NCBI GenBank assembly: GCA_000827325.1
Contig: KN832908.1
Span: 1 to 64,000 of the forward strand
Length of the DNA: 64,000 bases
Direction: 5' to 3'
DNA from: Oidiodendron maius Zn
Lineage: Eukaryota; Ascomycota; Leotiomycetes; Myxotrichaceae
The position numbers and the translations under genes are program-made. This document shows positions 12,445 through 27,957 of the stretch, one piece after another. The notes under the pieces are model-generated. The model did not search any database. It was not told the DNA's origin and was given only the letters and a program-made list of their open reading frames with translations. The first letter of the stretch is position 1, and every line of letters begins with the position of its first letter.

Positions 12445-13310
12445 TTAAAAGACCAATCGATTTTTCACTTCGCAATCCACGCCCGGTAAACAACCCATAT
12501 CAGCGCTCATAGTGTTTGGGTCCTCTCCGGCCATCGCGGAGATCATATCAGCTGTAATTATGCTGCTGTTAACGTTACAACTACCTGTAGTCGATGGTAT
12601 ATATAAGCTTTGCAGCGTGCTACGAGACTGTAGATTCTGTGCTGCTGTTTGATGATCGGCATATTGAGGTAGGTTTGGTTGGGACATTTGGGGCCGGCCG
12701 GTCATCAACGTTGGACTAGGATTCCGAGGCAGTGAAGCGGGTACTAATGGTCGTTGGTGTGAATGATAGCTGACGCTGCTTATTGTTGATCCGGCTGTGC
12801 TGCTAGAAGTCATAAGTTGATGATCTGTCGCCTTGCCCGTATGATTAAAGGCACCAGACACAGGCAATCGGCTTAAGTCCCATGAGAATGGAGTAGTACT
12901 AATGCTAGTTTCTGACCACGGCTTGTGGGTTTGAAGTAGATGCTCAATAGCCTGGACAGGGGCGTTGTAACTTGGGATCCGGCTAGTCAATTGAACGTCG
13001 CCAGCCGACGAGGATTGCGAGTATACCTCAATGCTGTCCTCTCTAATGCCATGAAGCGCCAGAAGCCCTCGCAGTTTCCTGTTTTCATCGGCCACCTTCC
13101 TCGCAGCCATCTGAATCTCTGCTGAGGCCTCGATTCCATGTAGTTCGAACTGTCGCAAACGAGTCTCGAGCTCTTGAAGGTACTCTCTTCGGCGCAAACG
13201 GGAGCGTCGTTGATTATCCCGAATGCGGGCAAGATTCACCTTTTCCTGCTCGAATATAAGAGCGGGGGCATAGACTTGGGAGAGAAGGATCTTACCGAGG
13301 CGGTTGGCAT
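12445..13310 (-). CDS. bZIP transcription factor
   Basis: Exon 1 (13296-13310) encodes MPTAS. A 50-base intron (GTAAGATC...TTCGAGCAG) leads to exon 2 (12445-13245), for 271 residues. The frame also runs open through the intron upstream, which explains a longer apparent ORF. The basic region is NLARIRDNQRRSRLRRREYL (residues about 9-28; N..x7..R pattern NQRRSRLRR). The adjoining zipper QELETRLRQFELHGIEASAE is followed by the conserved AARKVADENRKLRGLLALHG. The end DCEVKNRLVF is also typical of this fungal bZIP family. The middle is Ser/Pro/Gln-rich and probably activating. It should act in the nucleus as a dimer; targets cannot be told. No disruption is seen, so this gene appears intact. Confidence 0.85.
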
Positions 13311-14801
13311 AGCGATGTTGTTTAAAACAGGTAGACGTGAAGTGATATACAAGTGCTGTAGGCAAAGGCCAAAAAGATCCAGGATGTTCGTCAACCGTCG
13401 AGCGGAAATGATGGCGATCGATCCCAGGTGATGCAGGCGTCCGCACAGTAGCCTCACTAGTTAGAGATATGTGGCTGATGCTTTGCAGGTTCGACAAGAT
13501 GCAGTATATCGGGCTGTATTTGGCTTCATTGAGAACTGCGGTCCCACTCCAACTCGGGCCGGAAGAAGTTGACGTGTCTTTACAATATCAGTCAATAGGG
13601 ATCGGGGCTCGCGACTTCGCCACAACGAGGCGAATCTAGATGTCTTGGCAGCTGGAGATCGTCCTGCTAAAACGGACACCCAAGATAAAAGTTCCCGTGT
13701 TTCAGGGCCACTGGTCCCAGGGAAAGGCATAATAATGGCCAGGCCCGGTTTCTACAGAGCTGGCAAAATGACCCGAGAGTTCTGGCGCTAGACTGTTAGC
13801 AATGCAGCCCGTGTATTTGTTTGGATTTGAAACACCCATAGTCGCGTCCCCTTTCTAGCGCTACGAGATAGTGACATCCATTACCCTCCGATACTATTTC
13901 TGCGCAAAGCACAATTTTGGATATCTTCTGCCCTGGTCAAAATACGGACCTTGGTTGAAAGGCTTGGGAAACCCAGAGTCTTGAGTCATTGCCACTTCTG
14001 GGGAAGAGTTAAGCGCCGTGGGATACGAGTTGACCGAGTAGCACGACACACTGTGATATCATTTAGGTAGGCAAAAATCATGAGAATTTCATAATCCTTG
14101 ATCCTAAATAACTGTCATGCCAGGTAAAGTTATAGGTGGAAGTGCAAAGATCTCACTTTTCCCTTCACGAGACCTGTGTTGGCTCAGTGGGGAAGGGAGA
14201 GTGGTCTTGCACACTTTTAATCACCACATCTGGCCTGATATAGCCCTCAAAGCCCCAAGCAGGAAATCATAACCCCTCTCTAAGGGGACGGATGCTCTAT
14301 TGCCTGATAAGCCGAATGGTCGATCATAGACCGGACGCCTCGCGAATGCAGGAGGGGTAACCGCATCCAGAGTGTCAATGTCCGTAGCATTAGCCTCAGA
14401 AGATGGGTATCACGTCAAATCAGTGTGGGAAGATGCTGACCCGGATTATCCCGTATGGGAGATTGAAAACACTACCACTGGCTTGATCAGGATCATAATT
14501 ACGATGCGTCGGAAGATCGTTAACTTAATAGGTTGACTTGATGACAGAGATCTTGGGCACCTTGATTTGAGCCCTCCTTCGACATCTGCAAAGAGGTCTG
14601 GATCAATAATTTTGATATATGAACAATTATCACTATTTATCAAGTGATTGTGCCGCAAACCTCGTTCCCTATGGAGCTAATATTTCAGATTCTGTACCGC
14701 TTTCCTCCACCCGGTTAATGACAGCAGATATAACCTCACGGTAGACAGCCTGGATCTGTTAAGAAGCGTATCGAATCCAGCCTATAATCAGTCACGAAAG
14801 T
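13311..14801. other. Intergenic, no supported gene
   Basis: Contains the upstream region of the bZIP gene. A minus-strand frame at 13461-13730 (89 codons) is Arg/Ser-rich without recognisable features and could be an upstream leader ORF. Confidence 0.4.
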
Positions 14802-17495: not shown

Positions 17496-19222
17496 CTAGC
17501 TGCTCACTCTGTAGACTTCAGGTGAGGGGAAAGGTTCGGCAATGCCGGTTGCAAATAGAAGATACGACAGAGAGCATGGCATGCGGCGGAGGCCGTAAAG
17601 ACTTTCATAGGAGCGCATAAGTGCAATGATCGCATTAACGGCTTCGGCACAGACGTTGGTAGTAGTGATATTGGCACCCAAGGAAATTACCTCTTGGAGC
17701 GGATGAATGATGAAGAAGACACTGAAGTGGTAATAAATACTGCTCGGCCTCCCGTTAGCGAGGCATCTGATGTACTGGAGCCAACTTACTGGACAAAGAT
17801 AACGGCAGGGGTTGAATTGAATCCCAGTCTTAACGCTCCCGGTAGAGAGCTGTACCACTTGAGCATACAAGTATAGTAATTCAGGATATCCTGACTGTTG
17901 GGTGAATCTGCGTCTGCATACATTGCGTAAAGAGCGTCGTGAATAATGGTCGAGAGCTTGCAGAGTCTGTTATATACCCAGCGGGCATGACTAGGTTGCT
18001 GCAAATGTAGGCCTTCGCGGATCTCTTCCCTTGAATATGGCATCCATTCCCTCAGGTCGTTTGTATCGAGTGAGACAAACTTTAAAGACGGGACACTATA
18101 CTTTGAAATCTGTGGAAGAGAGCCAGAAATAAGAGACCAGGCTCTGCAAAGGGACTGGCTTCAACCGATGTCTAACTTTGGGAGTGAGAAGATGACTTAC
18201 TGGTCTAACATGAATGCTCCCCAAAACGTGACGCGACGGACTTCAAGCTCATCCGAAGACGCCTCGTCTGAGTCCATCTCGCGATGCAGTCCCATCTCGA
18301 CTGTCATTCGTATCGCCTGTCCTGCATAGAACTGAGCTTTTCTGTCTCGCCTCTGGCTTGTATTCCAAAGCGACATCTGCGCTAGAGCTTGAACAATAGT
18401 GATCGAACGTTCTCCGTGGTGTAACAAGAGAAGTCTCTCAGCCTCAGCAAAGAAATGAATCCCCGTATTCATCCCATCATTCGGAGATAATGGAGTCTCA
18501 TCCTGGTCTGAAAGCTTACAGGCAACTGCTAGAATTGCATTGACTAGCAGGGGCAAGCAGTACCTATCCTGTCCTGCGTTGAAGTCGTCGACAAAATGAC
18601 GCTTAGACAAGCTAGAGAAGATAGGATACTCCCAGCAGAAGTACAAGTGTAGAAGATGTTCGATGAACTCGTTATCTAGACTCAGCTCTGTCCAACGACT
18701 TCCACGCTTAAATTCATCTATCTTGCTCGTACCTAGCGTCTCCCTGTTAGCGATACCCCCATTTCGCACTTTGACCTTATCGCCTCTTTGCAGTGATGTT
18801 CTACAAATAAGGTGTCCGGCCCTTAGGTTGCTTTGGCTTAGTTGCTCGTATATCTCTTCGAGCTGTAACCGTCGCTGTAGGCTGTGAATTATGAACTCTG
18901 ATCGATCTCCATGAGCGAGAGATCCAAGAACCTGCTCGCTTAACTGACGATATTCCTGCAATTCTCTAATCTCTAGCTTTAGAGCTTCCTTTTTAATATG
19001 TACAGACCCTCTATACTTGCAATTTAGTCTCTTCTTTGATATGCAGCGCGTATATGGCTTCTGTCCGTTGTACTGTTGATCCTGATTAGCGGGAATGGCC
19101 AATAGCGTATTATTAGACGTTACCTTTGCTCTCCCTTTCCTGCATTCCGTGCAGGCTGCCTTGGTTATGGGGCGAGGGTCTCTTCGTCTACACGATAGTG
19201 CGTTATAATCTGCTATCTTCAT
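17496..19222 (-). CDS. Zn2Cys6 regulator (fungal_trans type) with damaged zinc cluster
   Basis: Four exons fit one frame: 19124-19222, 18201-19072, 17790-18143 and 17496-17739, with introns of 51, 57 and 50 bases, for 522 residues from the ATG at 19222. The family resembles the regulators often annotated nitrogen-assimilation factor nit-4/nirA-like. The cluster reads ACTECRKGRAK, YNGQKPYTRC, ISKKRLNC: cysteines 3 and 4 of the C-x2-C-x6-C-x5-C-x2-C-x7-C motif are tyrosines (codons at 19070-19072 and 19052-19054), each one G-to-A step from Cys. A coiled coil follows (EALKLEIRELQEYRQLSEQV). The fungal_trans domain contains HLLHLYFCWEYPIFS, QALAQMSLWNTSQRRDRKAQ and HIYYHFSVFFIIHPL. The C-terminus is shorter than usual. 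With two zinc ligands missing, DNA binding should be lost although the rest is open. Confidence 0.8.
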
Positions 19223-21495
19223 TCTGCTCTCACCCAGACTAATTTTGCTACAGACTTGGCTTGAAATATATTTCCACGTTACCCTAGAGCATGCGGGGTT
19301 GTATTGATCCATGCTTTTATCATGGTGTGGTCTGTTCGGGTCTGGACCCAGCGATAATTTATGCTGCTCTCGTTGATTCGTTAATGCATGCCACCAATAT
19401 GCCTCAGAGGCTGGATTGCAGCGTCAGCGTCCAAGCTCCCCGCACCAATGCCAGCAGCATTCTGAGTCCTCGGAAATTGTGATGTTGGCATTTTTTATTG
19501 GTTGTACGTGCGTATAATAATGTAGAGTCTTGCAGTCGACCACTTAATCGGCCATCAGCGGGGTTATATCGGCCCTTTGGCATTGCTCAAGATTGCTGTG
19601 GTTTCTTTGAGGGTGTCGAGAGCCGAACGCACCAGAATAGTACTCACCATACCATCCGCGCATCACTTTGAACCGTAGAGCAACTGATTTTAGCTATGCT
19701 TAGTGCTGTGTTGTGGAGTCCTACATTATCAAAACTGCAGCTCTTATAGATCGCTTTACTGTACAGTATTGCAATACTCTGTGGGACTTTTTCGATCGGG
19801 ACGCCGCAAGTTTACAGGGTCAACAGGATTCCCACATTTCTAAATTGCTTGTGTCGCTCTACGTCAAGAGCATCCTTATGCTTTGCGCACACTGTTCAAC
19901 GCATCCCTTTCGACCCGCAGAGGTGAGTAGGACTTCCTTATTCTATCCTCTACTTGGAAAGTAAAGCTAATAATGTAGTAGCGCTACAATCGCACTTTTC
20001 CTCAAATTAGCTTAGGCATATTAGTCCAGTGTGCCATTTTCAGGATCTCTTTGCACCCTCCCTCAACCGCCCCGAAAACCGAATCCAACACGTTATAGAT
20101 ACAACAATCTAACACCGCATAATGGATCTAGAGAAGTATACAATAACGGTGGGATGAGAATATGCAGCGGACCAAGCGGTTTCGTTCTAGTGGCGGTTTG
20201 GCAGTATATTTGACGGTTGAGTGAACGTCTTCTATTCTCTCCGTGCATGTTCATCCTTGGATGCCACTTTTACGGAGAATCTACAAAGAGGGTGCACACA
20301 AACTCAAATGAGAAACCAGTGTATCTCTCACCAGATGCTCTAAGCAGAAGATCATCACTTTTTGCGGCCGGGGGTTGCCCAATGCCGGATGCAGCCTCTG
20401 CTCACCTCGGATGTTCGAGTTGCAAGCAATCGGTAATCTTCACGAACCCTCATTTATTAACCCCTCTTCGGATCAAATGCCCATCCAGAAGGATAGCCTC
20501 TCCTGTAGTTCAGAGATGGCGCCATAACAGAGACTACGGTCCTCCTCAGGAAACAGCAGGCTCGATAAATTGGCCGTCTAAGCTGCCAACATGGTGAGCA
20601 TCAACACCCTCATAGTCCTGATAGCCGCCATTTGATTCTATGGTTCCACTTCTACCATATTGGAGCAGACGCAACGTTGCAGGGGGGCGATCCGATTTTC
20701 CGCATTTTCAAAATTTGGCTTCGGTCGTTTACAGTAACCGACATTCCTGTGAAGCGAAAATCCCGAGCAGGCTGACAACGCCGGCTGAATTGTAAAAGTC
20801 TCAACAAAAATAGCATGACTCCTGTCGTAGCTATGTTGCTTCATTCCTGGAGCAGTTTATCTCCTCTACTTGTATTATCTACTTTATAACATATACATTA
20901 GCTTAATACTGTAGTTGCGCAATAAGTGGCTCGTCCTGAAACCACTACTTACCTAAATCATATATTTTCTTCGCCTCAGTAATACTTCTACAGCCCGAAA
21001 GTTAGTCATGACTTATAATAGGCATTTAAATACAGTATAAAGACGACTAAGGTGTGTTAGTGTTATGAGTCAGAACCCGAGGTTGTAAACGATCAGCTAA
21101 ACTGACTGCACTCGGCTTGAATTGCCACCTAGGGAAAGCTTGTACTACAGCCACACACGTATTTGATAACGCCGACATATATTATCATGCGCGTCACATG
21201 TGGGATGTACTGTACTGTAACATAGCTTTCCCTCGTCAGAGTGTTTCGCCCATCGCAATGCGCGATTGCTCTCATTGCCGCGGTATAGATGTCTCTTCCA
21301 ATATGTAGCCTTTTTCTCTGCTGCTCACTCAAGGTAGACTAGGCACCCAGCTGCATCGCAGAGACATTATGAAGGTGCGGCTGATGTGCTTCGCCACCCC
21401 GCCAGCAAGGGCATGGAATCGCTCACAAATATTTAACGGTATTGCAAGACCCCGAGCACCGACTTTGTGCTTTAGTAAATAGCCACAGAACCAAG
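19223..21495. other. Intergenic, about 2.3 kb, no supported gene
   Basis: Open frames at 19713-19964 and 20217-20597 have no recognisable family, and splice patterns are not evident. The last 70 bases are the serpin leader, with an A/T-rich AAATATTTAA box at 21427-21436. Confidence 0.4.
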
Positions 21496-22605
21496 ATGGT
21501 ATCAGTGATGCAAGCAAACAGCAAGCTAGGATGGGACATTTTGAAAAAGCTATACGACGATGACGGGGATCTTCTCGCAGGCGGGAGAACGCTCTCGCCT
21601 CTATCACTGACGATAGCAGTCGGCATGCTGGCGGGAGCAGCCGATGCTACGAAAAAGCGCGACTTGAGCACAAAACTTGGAGTACAGCCTGATGGGACCG
21701 TGGAGAACGAGTTTGCAATGTTGCTGTCGTCGCTGGCCGTAGACAAAACTGGCAGTCCATTGGCGATAGCAAATGGAGTCTTCACCGATGAGTCCATCAC
21801 ACTCTATCAGAAGTACGTCGACTTTTTGGCAACCTTTAAAGCCAGCATTACGCAATATCCAAGCCTCCCGGCGGCCGTGGACGATATCAACGCCTGGATC
21901 AGCGACAACACGTTGCAGCTTATTCAGGAAATGCTCTCGAAAGGGGCGTTGAAAAGTACACATGTTGTTCTAGTGAACGCGATAGCGTTCAAGGGGATGT
22001 GGATTGAGCCATTTAATCCGAGCGAAACAAAGAATCACCCCTTCTACGCCACAGAGCGACACAAGATATCCGTGAAGATGATGTTCAGGCACGACGCGGC
22101 AGTGTTGTCCTTCAAGGCTCCGACCTTCACTGCTCTGTGTCTACCGTACAAGTCGGCCACAATAACGTCGGCTACATCTCTCATCGCGTTCTTGCCAAAC
22201 AAGGGAGTGAACTTGCGCACTGCTCTGGACGATATATCCAGCACCAAGATCACGTTAGCCAGGTTCTCGAAGATTGAATACAGGCGACTCGGCTTCCCAA
22301 GATTCGAGCTGCGAAGCGACCTATCTGTTTTGGATGTCCTTCAAAGCCTAGGTTATCCAATCAAGGGGTCCTATTCGCAAATGGGAACGGGTGGCAACAG
22401 GGTTGACAAGGTGCTCCATCGAGCCGTGGTGAAGGTAGATGAGGAGGGGACCGTCGCCGTCGCCGCCACAGCGGTATTGATGACAAGAGGAAGAGTAATG
22501 CGGCAGACGAAGCCGGACTTGATATTCGACAGGCCATTCGCGTTTACGATTGTCGAAAACAAGACGAACACGGTGCTATTTGTGGGGATGTTTTCCGTCC
22601 AGTGA
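21496..22605 (+). CDS. Serpin (serine protease inhibitor family), intact
   Basis: A single 369-residue exon from the ATG at 21496 (context CCAAGATGG) to TGA. Family landmarks appear in order: LSPLSLTIAVGMLAGAADAT (helix B region), INAWISDNTLQLIQEML (helix F), VVLVNAIAFKGMWIEPF (strand 3A), KMMFR, then HRAVVKVDEEGTVAVAATAV (strand 5A and hinge, residues about 308-327), and FDRPFAFTIV...VLFVGMFSVQ (C-terminal signature). The hinge EEGTVAVAAT has small residues at the alternate positions needed for loop insertion, so an inhibitory, mobile serpin is expected. By canonical numbering P1 is Gly332 and P1' Arg333; with one extra loop residue P1 would be Arg333, fitting a trypsin-like or Kex2-like target. 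No signal peptide is visible, suggesting an intracellular site. The gene has no intron. Fungal serpins are rare, so transfer from another group is possible. Confidence 0.92.
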   Translation: MVSVMQANSKLGWDILKKLYDDDGDLLAGGRTLSPLSLTIAVGMLAGAADATKKRDLSTKLGVQPDGTVENEFAMLLSSLAVDKTGSPLAIANGVFTDESITLYQKYVDFLATFKASITQYPSLPAAVDDINAWISDNTLQLIQEMLSKGALKSTHVVLVNAIAFKGMWIEPFNPSETKNHPFYATERHKISVKMMFRHDAAVLSFKAPTFTALCLPYKSATITSATSLIAFLPNKGVNLRTALDDISSTKITLARFSKIEYRRLGFPRFELRSDLSVLDVLQSLGYPIKGSYSQMGTGGNRVDKVLHRAVVKVDEEGTVAVAATAVLMTRGRVMRQTKPDLIFDRPFAFTIVENKTNTVLFVGMFSVQ

Positions 22606-23702: not shown

Positions 23703-25136
23703 ATGCCACTGCTTAAGCTGGCAAATGAATTGCTGCAGTCCATAGTGCAACATCTAAACGTACTGAAGGACATAAATGCATTTTGCCAAACAAACAAGAG
23801 GCTTTATGCTCTTCTGAATATATATCTCTACCACCAGGAAATATACTGGTTTGAAAGTTCTGCACTGCTATAGGCTGTATGATATAGACATATAGCGACT
23901 ACTGAGGTATTAATCAAAGACAGTACGGATGTTCAAGTAACAAATCATTATGGTTGGTCCTCGCTATCAATGGCTGCAAAATTTAGGCATGATATAATGG
24001 TGAAGCTCCTCCTTTATATACAAGGTATTAATACAGATTATAGAGATGATTTTGATTGTATACCGCTATCACTAGCTGCAGTAGGTGGCCATATAAAGGT
24101 AGTAAAGTTGCTGACTAAGGAGCATAATATTGACATTAATTCTATAGACTATAACGGCAATATACCGCTATTATAGGCTGCAGAGAACGGATATAAGGAA
24201 GTGGTGAAGCTACTAATTGCTTATAGTAACGTTAGTCCAGAGCTAAGAAATAATATCTATAGTACAACCCCTCTGTTTTGTGCTGTATAGAGGGGCCATA
24301 AGGGCATAGTCAAGTTGCTGCTTGCTGATAGCCGGATCGACCCTAACTCCAGGGGATTTTGCGGTCAGACACTAGTGCTGCAGGCTATAGTTAACAGATA
24401 TAACCCGGTTGCGAAGTTGCTGCTAGCAAGGGATAACGTTAATCCAAATAAGCCTGTAAATAGGCTCCCACTTATTTTTTGTACAGCAAGGTTTGGGTAT
24501 AATACAGTAGTGAAACTACTGCTTATAAAGGATAGGGTTAATCCTGACCCTAAAGATCACCTATATAGCCAGTCACCGTTAACTTGGGCAGCAGTATAGG
24601 GGCATATAGCTATAGTGAAATTATTTCTTATAAATTCTGGTGTCAACTGTAACGCCAGGGACTTTCAAAGCTGGATACCGCTTTGGTAGGCTACAAGGCA
24701 TAGGTATAAGGCAGTAGTTCAACAGCTGCTTGCGAGCGATAGCATTAATCCAGATACCAAGGATATTTGTGGCTAGACCCCGCTATCGGTAGCGGTATAG
24801 GGTAGGAACGACCGAATAGTATGCCTTCTTCTTTCAAGAATAAGTGTTAATCCGGACTCTAAAGACAGTGATAGCCAAACACTATTATACTAGGCAGTAG
24901 CGGAAGGAAATAAGGCAGCGGTATTGGCTTTGCTAGAGAAATCAAGTGCAAAAACCGAAGACTATTGCGGATATACCCCTCTCTATATAGCTGCTATTAG
25001 ATCATATAGAGAGGTGGATCTAATCCTTACTGATGAAACAGCCTCTGCCCGAGATGACTTCTATAGACTCCAGTCTATGTTTTGTGACGGCACATGCGTC
25101 ACGTGGCTAGGAGGTCTGCGTTTGCACTTATATTAA
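23703..25136 (+). pseudogene. F-box / ankyrin-repeat protein gene with nine nonsense codons
   Basis: One frame of 478 codons. It starts with an F-box-like segment (LKLANELLQSIVQHLNVLKD then INAFCQTNKRLYALLN, residues 4-38), followed by about ten ankyrin repeats of roughly 33 residues (for example IPLSLAAVGGHIKVVKLL-type units: PLSLAAVGGHIKVVKLLTKE, VVKLLIAYSNVSPE, PLTWAAV). Nine internal stops occur: eight TAG and one TGA (23880). TAG often falls at the Trp/Gln position of the repeat consensus, so the changes are TGG or CAG to TAG, and CGA to TGA, as RIP makes. No frameshift is seen. Fungal F-box/ankyrin proteins are multi-copy candidates for ubiquitin adaptors; multi-copy status would explain exposure to RIP. 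It is probably dead as a full-length protein. Confidence 0.8.
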
Positions 25137-26421
25137 ACCTCTGCGCACCTAGCTAGTTGCTCCTTACTTTAGTATCTTCGTCAATACAGCATCATTGCCA
25201 GCCACTGCCTCCCTTGTGAAGCTTATATTAGCTGGGCTGTCACATGTTTCTGGAAAACGACAAGAACTTTCAACCGTGAGACCATATGGCTGTGAGACGA
25301 TCCCAGTTACGAAGGACTCTTTATAAATGCTCTTTGTCAGAGGTCAGGTAATGCACAGGTTGTAGTCGGATATCAAGGTGAAACTCAGTTATATTGATTA
25401 CTGAGTAATATAGAGACAACTATCGAGTATAGATACGCTGGCATAAGGCTCTCTTATATAGACCTATTCAGCCTCTTACGACTTACATGAACCCTCTGAA
25501 TCCTAGATCCTGAATCCTAAAGGATATATGATATATATGCTTGAGGCCCTAGTCAATAAATGCTTTGCTATATTATTATCTAATCAACCCCAGTTTGATC
25601 CGATATGGCAGAATTATATAGCAGGTACAGTATAACAAACATTAAGGCCTGTTCCTAGTTGAATCATTACCACTTATCAGCTACCGGTATAGGAGTATGT
25701 TGTTTATGTCTTGTAGTACTATACAAGACTATACCTGGTAACTTTGATTGTGGTATATCTGCATTTGGAATGCATGATTTTATCATGTATTCGGCTTTAT
25801 TGAATATAGGTGTAGCTGTAGAACAAACAGACTGTCAACCACATGGCAAGTAAAGCCGAACGCAATTTTGCTGGCTTTTTTAACCACGAGTTCTGACCCA
25901 TGAAACTTAATACAACTTAGACCTCAGATATATGAAATTCTCTTTATACTATATTTAAATAACTATTCTAAATCATGACCAAATTTTAAGCTCTAGAAAC
26001 ATTGTCGAGGAATAGAAAATATGTAATTTAGGTAAATAGTGGTTTAATAACGAGATGCTTCTCGCCCAACTAATTAGCCAATATACAAGTTATAAAAGAG
26101 AGAATACAAAATTAGGGGAAAGATTGTGCTAGGAATGACTTAAGACAACTACAAAAACTAAAATACTAGTTGTGATCGCGAACCTTGCCATTTGGTCAAG
26201 GTCCCAGCCTTCCTACAGGATTTTCGCTTCGCAGGGATGTCGGTTACTGTCGAAGGAAATATAGGACTGAGAACCTAAGGGACTCCGAACTTTAGTTGCC
26301 GACTCTGGGCTGCAGGTTCTCGGTTGCGGGTTCCAGCTGATTCAGGGTTTTACAGTAGGGACACTCTGACCATTAACTAAAATCAATCGCGGGGTGCTGT
26401 AACCCCGCCCCCCCCTTCAAC
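25137..26421. other. Intergenic, no supported gene
   Basis: Mixed sequence ending in a C-rich stretch before the pogo element. A hairpin shared with 51983-52006 lies at 25768-25792. Short frames here (for example 25659-25853) are not convincing. Confidence 0.45.
25761..25792. repeat. Hairpin repeat, copy A
   Basis: GCATTTGGAATGCATG followed by an A/T loop and CATGTATTCG. The reverse complement of 51983-52011 starts with the same 16 bases and has the same stem, with a different loop. Confidence 0.55.
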
Positions 26422-26973: not shown

Positions 26974-27726
26974 TTAACCTAGCCAACCAGTCAGATTTGA
27001 CTGCTTCTTTAAGTTGGTCTTTTCGGCCTGTAAGATCCGTAACTCCTTCCGTAACTGGGCTGTTAGGTCCTGATTAGCCAGCTGATCCCTTTGCTCCTGG
27101 TATAATTTTAGAGTATTTAATACTGCAATTGCTTCAGATACCGAGACCTTAGCCACCTCCTCAACACTAGCCTCTTGATTGTCCTGGAGGGAGTAATACG
27201 CTATAATCTGATCAGTTATATCCTCTTCCGAATCAACTATCCTTTCGTCCTCTGAGTGGATAAAGCTCCTTATATCTGCTGGCTCAATCCTTTGATTAGA
27301 AGTAGCTAGAGATCTAGCCATGCCTTGAATTTCCTGGATTAATTCAAGAGATTCGGCCCAGTAGCTATTATTTTCTGGCCCTTCTTTCACCTCTTCAACC
27401 TCTCTGAATCCTTTTTGCCAGCATCTAGTTATTAGAGTCGAATCAACAGACTCCCAGGCTTGAATACCCCACTCAATGGCCCGTAAAACATGGTATATCT
27501 TAGTATAATCCCTCCTAGCGTCGAATTCGGTCATAAGAAACTGTAAAAGCTGCTTCTTAACATAACACTTCCAGTTCTGAATAATCCCTTGATCTAATGG
27601 TTGAAAAATAGACGTTGTATTAGCTGGAAACCACTCAATTCGAGTCCACTTAAGTGGTTGATTACTCTCCCTGATCAATTCAACTGCAGCTTCATGAGCA
27701 CTAAAGTTATCCATTAAAAGAAGCAT
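26974..27726 (-). pseudogene. pogo/Fot1 transposase, C-terminal half
   Basis: A 250-codon open frame beginning MLLLMDNFSAHEAAVELI (second catalytic Asp of the DDE/D triad in MDNFSAH), then WFPANTTSIFQPLDQGII (third catalytic Asp in QPLDQ) and NWK. Its C-terminus is acidic and then a coiled coil (LRKELRILQAEKTNLKKQS). It is cut at its N-terminal side by the gypsy insertion at 27729. Unlike its other half, this part is nearly free of RIP changes. Confidence 0.9.
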
Positions 27727-27728
27727 AG

Positions 27729-27957
27729 TGTAACAGCTCAGGAAGAATATAGATCTGGATCCTTAGGATAAGGCATAGCGCTGGATACAAGGTATATTCA
27801 ACTATCAACCGAGATAACTAAAAGAACAAGTTAAGGAGTAAAGGAGAGGACAAGAGTAGAGCTCCTTATATACAGGAGGGGCTTGTCAGGTGACCTGTAG
27901 AAGCGTGATTACTGCTACACTGGTAAACCGCTAGCTAATCTGGCCAGGTTTGTTATA
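27729..27957 (-). repeat. LTR (left) of the gypsy element
   Basis: Pairs with 39139-39367. This copy retains near-normal composition. Confidence 0.85.

What the first reader, a model, noticed from the sequence alone, without database searches (positions are those of the whole stretch)
21496..22605. Intact, intronless serpin gene in a filamentous fungus
Serpins are common in animals, plants and some bacteria but very rare in fungi. This one has all major landmarks, a hinge (EEGTVAVAAT) fit for inhibition, no signal peptide and no RIP damage although both neighbours are damaged. That suggests retention by selection, and the single exon and patchy family distribution suggest horizontal transfer. 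The Arg-rich reactive loop (TRGR) points to a trypsin-like or Kex2-like protease.
Basis: partly seen in the sequence, partly recalled or inferred. Interest (0 to 1): 0.85.

Follow-up and report, generated by a model that had tools for sequence, protein, structure and literature searches.

The report
Intact intracellular serpin of a fungus
An ascomycete-type fungus carries an intact gene for a serpin, a suicide-type protease inhibitor; it belongs to a fungal serpin family that is patchy but already known, and its reactive loop suggests it may restrain one of the fungus's own arginine-cutting proteases.

Summary
The gene is real: 21496-22605 (+), 369 codons, no intron, full-length Pfam Serpin (E 1.8e-67), confident serpin model (pLDDT 85.8) that matches solved serpins. 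It is not an orphan. It sits in a fully supported clade with serpins of Talaromyces, Ilyonectria, Dactylonectria and Fusarium, and the same genome holds a second, very different serpin of another fungal clade. No bacterial, animal or plant donor is resolved; one fungal origin of both clades is not rejected (p-AU 0.73 and 0.36). Fungal serpins, one with a knockout phenotype, are in print (PMC13236867). 'Both neighbours damaged' is half right: the downstream ankyrin gene carries in-frame TAGs; the upstream transcription factor can be read through two ordinary introns. The newer part is the loop: both fungal clades mostly have Lys/Arg as the 16th residue from P17 (12 of 14 and 11 of 13 parsed rows, against 4 of 30 other serpins). 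With no visible signal peptide, this points to an internal Arg/Lys-specific protease. Metacaspase is my best single guess, untested.

The parts
21496..22605 (+). serpin gene, no intron, 369 aa plus stop
   Evidence: Pfam PF00079 E 1.8e-67; AlphaFold2 model pLDDT 85.8
22441..22473 (+). hinge EEGTVAVAATA (residues 316-326, P17 to P7)
   Evidence: Gly318, Ala321, Ala323, Ala324 and Thr325 invariant in the 14 rows of alignment A1
22474..22512 (+). exposed reactive-centre loop VLMTRGRVMRQTK (residues 327-339), the only segment of 3 or more residues with pLDDT under 50
22486..22491 (+). proposed scissile bond Arg331-Gly332 (hinge of 16 residues)
   Evidence: inference
20735..21188 (.). degenerate dispersed repeat upstream of the gene (copies over 300 bases 66-73% identical, on several contigs)
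17496..19423 (-). upstream neighbour: fungal transcription-factor gene, readable across two predicted short introns
23901..25200 (+). downstream neighbour: ankyrin-repeat gene with seven in-frame TAG stops (24174-24891), RIP-like

Best explanation
This is a functional, intracellular, inhibitory serpin of an old, patchily found ascomycete serpin family. Its loop presents Arg331-Gly332 as bait (shown: sequence and alignment; inferred: P1). A target protease would cut there, the hinge would insert into sheet A, and the protease would be trapped (general serpin mechanism, inferred from hinge and fold). Because the protein has no visible signal peptide and because a Lys/Arg at the same loop position recurs in two very different fungal serpin clades, the target is most likely an endogenous cytosolic or nuclear protease that cuts after Arg/Lys. 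Metacaspase is the best single candidate (about 0.3), then a trypsin-like protease met when cells lyse or inside a host.
For: Fold and family. Hinge residues of inhibitory serpins kept in the clade. Purifying pattern of the P0001/P0002 differences and 43 of 43 otherwise invariant columns kept. Lys/Arg as 16th residue from P17: clade A 12 of 14, clade B 11 of 13, others 4 of 30; as 18th residue 8 of 14, 8 of 13, 0 of 30 (parsed rows only). Arg331-Gly332 aligns with the Arg-Gly of Arabidopsis AtSerpin1 (3le2), with the same 17 residues to the conserved Phe. Arg at the 18th place is a poor P1 for the family because Pro follows it in 4 of 14 clade A rows, though in the window protein Val follows. 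AtSerpin1 inhibits metacaspases AtMC9 and AtMC1, and the Chlamydomonas serpin inhibits CrMCA-I (PMC10609998, passages including Table 2). Metacaspases cut after Arg/Lys, and type I is the widespread kind (PMC5613156, passages). Ac-VRTR-AMC, with Thr-Arg, was the reference substrate for the algal type II metacaspase (PMC10896300, passages).
Against: By the usual 17-residue count P1 would be Gly332, not Arg331; AtSerpin1 has its Arg at 17. P0004, the tree neighbour of the window protein, has no Arg there (EAPIGVAP), so the bait is not invariant; on the tree the basic state needs at least 6 changes. P0002, 96% identical, lacks one loop residue (TRRV). No transcript and no inhibition data. The protease content of this genome could not be read: every request for PF00656 and PF00089 did not complete. 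In Metarhizium a serpin knockout lowered virulence without a reported growth defect (PMC13236867, passages), which fits a host target at least as well.
Confidence: 0.5

Rival explanations
1. Exported or lysis-released inhibitor aimed at a host's or competitor's trypsin-like proteases (a counter-defence protein).
For: A Metarhizium brunneum serpin knockout was less virulent to flies, and the authors cite upregulation of that serpin during aphid infection (PMC13236867, passages). A Lys/Arg loop suits trypsin-like proteases (specificity recalled). The setting, a 103-kb contig with RIP-like blocks, resembles accessory regions (inference).
Against: No signal-like N-terminus here or in the 13 other fungal rows tabulated, maximum 1.64. 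The loop position is conserved across two distant fungal clades, unusual for an arms-race loop (inference). It is not shown that the Metarhizium gene belongs to this clade.
Confidence: 0.25
2. Recent horizontal acquisition of a bacterial or animal serpin.
For: Patchy named distribution, no intron, and the other serpin of the genome has a predicted intron. Grouping with three animal serpins is not rejected at 0.05 (p-AU 0.09).
Against: Nested in a 100/99 clade that holds the named fungal serpins, which are 38-47% identical to it. Best prokaryote identities found are 30% over most of the length, 35% over one 45-residue stretch; the best other outside hit is a Volvox protein, 33% over 76%. Grouping with animals costs 36.6 log-likelihood units. 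One fungal origin with clade B is not rejected. An old transfer at the base of the family is not excluded.
Confidence: 0.1
3. Non-inhibitory serpin (chaperone, storage or nuclear structural role).
For: By the canonical count P1 is Gly; P13 and P11 are Val; one related protein (P0011, Fusarium) has a basic N-terminal extension that could be nuclear (inference).
Against: Ala at P12, P10 and P9 is invariant in the 14 rows of A1, and Thr at P14 nearly so.
Confidence: 0.12
4. Pseudogene or remnant that is intact by chance.
For: A 75-77% relative appears only as two half-length reading frames, apparently a broken copy (P0038, P0039).
Against: Open over 369 codons; 43 of 43 columns invariant in 12 other clade A rows are kept; substitutions against P0002 biased to variable sites.
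Confidence: 0.03

Closest known systems
Serpins of Talaromyces, Ilyonectria, Dactylonectria and Fusarium (database proteins, some named proteinase inhibitor I4)
   Same: Same clade, 38-47% identity, no signal-like N-terminus in those tabulated, Lys/Arg loop
   Different: TRGR loop; the only near copy, P0002 at 96%, is unnamed
Metarhizium brunneum myco-serpin (PMC13236867, abstract and passages seen)
   Same: Ascomycete serpin of about the same length, 365 aa, with Fusarium relatives according to the authors
   Different: Sequence not available here, so clade membership untested; reported with a virulence phenotype and relatives in Trichophyton and Aspergillus
Fungal clade B serpins (second gene of this genome, Stipitochalara, Hyaloscypha, Arachnomyces)
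   Same: Serpin domain, Lys/Arg at the same loop position in 11 of 13 parsed rows
   Different: 19-23% identical to the window protein; predicted intron inside the reactive loop in this genome's copy
Arabidopsis AtSerpin1 and Chlamydomonas CrSERPIN (metacaspase inhibitors by PMC10609998)
   Same: AtSerpin1 Arg-Gly aligns with Arg331-Gly332
   Different: AtSerpin1 hinge one residue longer; no stable sister relation in the trees; the CrSERPIN sequence was not seen
Piromyces celpin (cellulosomal serpin)
   Same: Fungal serpin
   Different: Has a CBM_10 domain beside the serpin (PMC8778642, passages)

Membership tests
Serpin superfamily (PF00079 / MEROPS I4) | full-length serpin profile above curated cut-off | tested here: met
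   228.6 bits against cut-off 27, positions 1-367 of 370
Serpin superfamily (PF00079 / MEROPS I4) | serpin fold | tested here: met
Inhibitory serpins | hinge with Gly P15, Thr P14 and mostly small residues P12-P9 | tested here: met
   EEGTVAVAAT; P11 is Val
Inhibitory serpins | covalent SDS-stable complex with a protease | not testable with these tools
   bench assay needed
Inhibitory serpins | 17-residue spacing to a P1 that suits the target | tested here: inconclusive
   canonical P1 is Gly332; the recurrent basic residue is at 16
Fungal serpin clade A | groups with named fungal serpins | tested here: met
   100/99 and 100/100 support in two trees
Metarhizium myco-serpin group | orthology to G6M90_00g004700 | not tested
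   sequence not held; no hit named Metarhizium, where most hits are unnamed and the candidates were limited
Metacaspase-inhibiting serpins | inhibits a metacaspase | not testable with these tools
   loop resemblance to AtSerpin1 only
Celpins | CBM_10 or dockerin-type domain beside the serpin | tested here: not met
   only PF00079 in the protein at E 0.001

The most novel reading that the evidence does not exclude
Ascomycetes keep two anciently separated families of intracellular serpins whose reactive loops share one Lys/Arg bait position and so act on the same endogenous protease; that protease is the type I metacaspase, making these the first endogenous metacaspase brakes in fungi, with the plant and algal serpin-metacaspase pairs as the same ancient pairing.
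Probability: 0.25. Interest if true: 0.75.

Novelty: new member of a known kind. Interest (0 to 1): 0.4.

Why it matters
Serpins in fungi were left as unclassified orphans in a superfamily-wide phylogeny (PMC8233489, passages), and I found no report of their protease targets in the passages I read. A genome with two clearly different fungal serpins that share a loop position gives a direct, cheap test of whether they restrain the fungus's own Arg/Lys-specific proteases, an open question in fungal cell death.

Tried and rejected
Recent transfer from bacteria or animals: looked for by pattern-and-tblastn scan of the GTDB genome contigs (72 stretches matched a pattern, 24 loci confirmed, best identity 30% over most of the length, 35% over one 45-residue stretch) and by trees; no donor. 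The weak Volvox sister placement of the first tree (93/67) vanished in the second tree, so I do not use it.

Kex2 target: Lys-Arg or Arg-Arg pairs occur in 5 of 15 clade A loops (P0002, P0005, P0008, P0011, P0038) and in 4 of 13 clade B loops, not in the window's; the residue before the 16th is Thr in 8 of 14 clade A rows and Lys/Arg in 2 of 14 there and 6 of 13 in clade B. Not favoured, not excluded.

dN/dS: not computed, because only the protein of P0002 is held; replaced by the entropy test. Both half-length relatives gave weaker bias (p 0.07 and 0.10).

I call it an ascomycete from RIP-like AT-rich blocks, gene content and the named relatives (inference).

Two searches scored only the candidates sharing most words (7995 and 7996), so absence of a fungal genus from the lists means little. 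Most clade A and B proteins are unnamed: 5 of 15 clade A hits (P0002-P0014, P0038, P0039) and 3 of 30 clade B hits (P0047-P0076) carry a fungal name. Viral serpins were not searched. In one search the loop parser lost 1 of 15 clade A rows (P0007, which by eye also has Lys there), 18 of 31 clade B rows (10 of them end exactly at the 15th loop residue, as if at an intron) and 12 of 42 others. P0061 and P0076 of clade B share one loop sequence, and the clade B row of this genome uses my predicted splice. On the tree the basic state needs at least 6 changes and the basic-x-basic state 7 (53 of 67 rows; the tree includes the loop columns), so it is clustered, not a single clean event.

The second tree leaves out 13 of 67 rows (long branches and fragments); the first row set was itself a choice: 44 of P0001-P0085, 19 of 24 prokaryote loci and 4 solved chains.

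Full report

Start and location. The ATG is shared with P0002 and P0039. The N-terminus has no signal-like stretch (maximum 10-residue hydropathy 0.34); the 13 other fungal rows tabulated reach at most 1.64, against 2.26-2.70 for three serpins outside the fungal clades in the same table. I therefore treat it as intracellular (inference; no SignalP).

Surroundings. The gene lies on a 103-kb contig. By 1-kb windows the stretch 3-24 kb is unmutated by RIP indices, as is 40-49 kb, while 1-3, most of 26-40 and most of 49-64 kb are AT-rich and RIP-like. Immediately downstream an ankyrin gene shows seven in-frame TAG stops. Upstream, a Fungal_trans transcription-factor gene (E 7e-22) seems broken only if introns are ignored: with two GTAAGT introns of 57 and 50 nt it reads on. 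So one neighbour is damaged, not both. DNA repeats flank the gene, but none of the 22 other matches of the 3.1-kb stretch in this genome covers the gene itself (which scores only the best candidates). RIP strikes repeated DNA (recalled), so its absence on an apparently single-copy gene needs no special selection.

Relatives. The protein search gave 36 hits: P0002 at 96%, twelve at 37-48% (P0003-P0014), and 23 at 22-33%. Five of the twelve are named fungal (Talaromyces pinophilus, Ilyonectria destructans, two Dactylonectria species, Fusarium sp. NRRL 52700). A profile search added two half-length pieces, 75 and 77% identical, which look like one broken copy (both report a longest contig of 2211 bases; inference). 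The genome itself has two serpin matches. The second, on contig C7, belongs to another fungal group with 30 closer hits, P0047-P0076, three of them named (Stipitochalara, Hyaloscypha, Arachnomyces). Its frame stops inside the loop. One predicted intron of 92 nt, GTTCGT..AAAG, gives a normal C-terminus with the loop RKSRMR, like RKSRSR of its relative P0049; 14 other intron choices also keep the frame, so this is the best fit, not proof.

Tree. In a 67-row maximum-likelihood tree clade A (12 rows, with the window protein) has 100/99 support, clade B (13 rows) 100/100. With 54 rows both stand at 100/100. Deeper forks are mostly weak. Holding A and B together is not rejected: log-likelihood 12.4 better in the first set (p-AU 0.73) and 3.0 worse in the second (p-AU 0.36). 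A with three animal serpins is 36.6 worse (p-AU 0.09, not rejected at 0.05); A with AtSerpin1 is 0.8 worse (p-AU 0.48).

Selection. The 15 substitutions between the window protein and P0002 fall on variable family sites (mean entropy 2.04 against 1.54, p 0.0099), one of them on the 80 strongly conserved sites of 364. Of 43 columns that are invariant in the 12 other clade A rows of A1 (P0002 set aside, at least 10 rows filled), the window protein keeps 43. The two half-length relatives have 6 of 43 and 6 of 38 differences on strongly conserved sites.

Loop. Counting from P17, the window loop is EEGTVAVAATAVLMT-R-G-RVM. The 16th residue is Lys/Arg in 12 of 14 clade A rows, 11 of 13 clade B rows and 4 of 30 others; the 18th is Lys/Arg in 8 of 14, 8 of 13 and 0 of 30 (rows lost to the parser are given under Tried and rejected). 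Among rows of the first tree the 16th is basic in 10 of 12, 9 of 11 and 4 of 30. The phmmer alignment sets Arg331-Gly332 on the Arg-Gly of AtSerpin1. That makes Arg331 the best P1, with a 16-residue hinge; from recall, a few known inhibitory serpins also have 16. Against it, the canonical count gives Gly332, and P0004 lacks the Arg.

Function. Shown: family, fold, intact frame, hinge, loop recurrence. Inferred: trapping mechanism, P1, cytosolic site, Arg/Lys-specific target. Metacaspase is suggested by P1 preference (PMC5613156, passages), by plant and algal precedent (PMC10609998, passages), and by a Thr-Arg substrate of an algal type II metacaspase (PMC10896300, passages). A host-directed role is suggested by the Metarhizium knockout (PMC13236867, abstract and passages). 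I could not list this genome's metacaspases or trypsins.

Known or new. Fungal serpins are in print: Metarhizium (PMC13236867), Piromyces celpin (PMC8778642, passages), and as unclassified orphans in the superfamily tree (PMC8233489, passages). A search for serpin, fungal and 'metacaspase inhibitor' together found 0 papers in the held library; the listings show no title or abstract on a shared fungal loop position, but I read passages of only the papers named here, and subscription journals are mostly not held. The gene is a new member of a known kind; the shared loop position of two fungal clades is the only part I would call new.

Noticed in passing
L002:1465-2508 (-), contig C7 of the same genome: Second serpin gene of the genome, fungal clade B, with a predicted 92-nt intron inside the reactive loop; 10 of 30 clade B database proteins end exactly at the 15th loop residue, as if the intron were conserved.
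   Followed up: partly
window 24174-24891: Ankyrin-repeat gene with seven in-frame TAG codons, RIP-like decay, beside the intact serpin.
   Followed up: partly
window 26974-27762 (-): DDE_1 transposase-like fragment beside an AT-rich block (Pfam E 6.9e-19).
   Followed up: no
window 12445-13587 (-): 380-aa open frame with a bZIP-looking basic region by eye, no Pfam match at E 0.01.
   Followed up: no
window 20735-21188: Degenerate dispersed repeat upstream of the serpin; copies over 300 bases on several contigs at 66-73% identity.
   Followed up: no
P0011, P0009 (relatives): Some clade A serpins (Fusarium P0011) carry a basic N-terminal extension that might be a nuclear signal.
   Followed up: no
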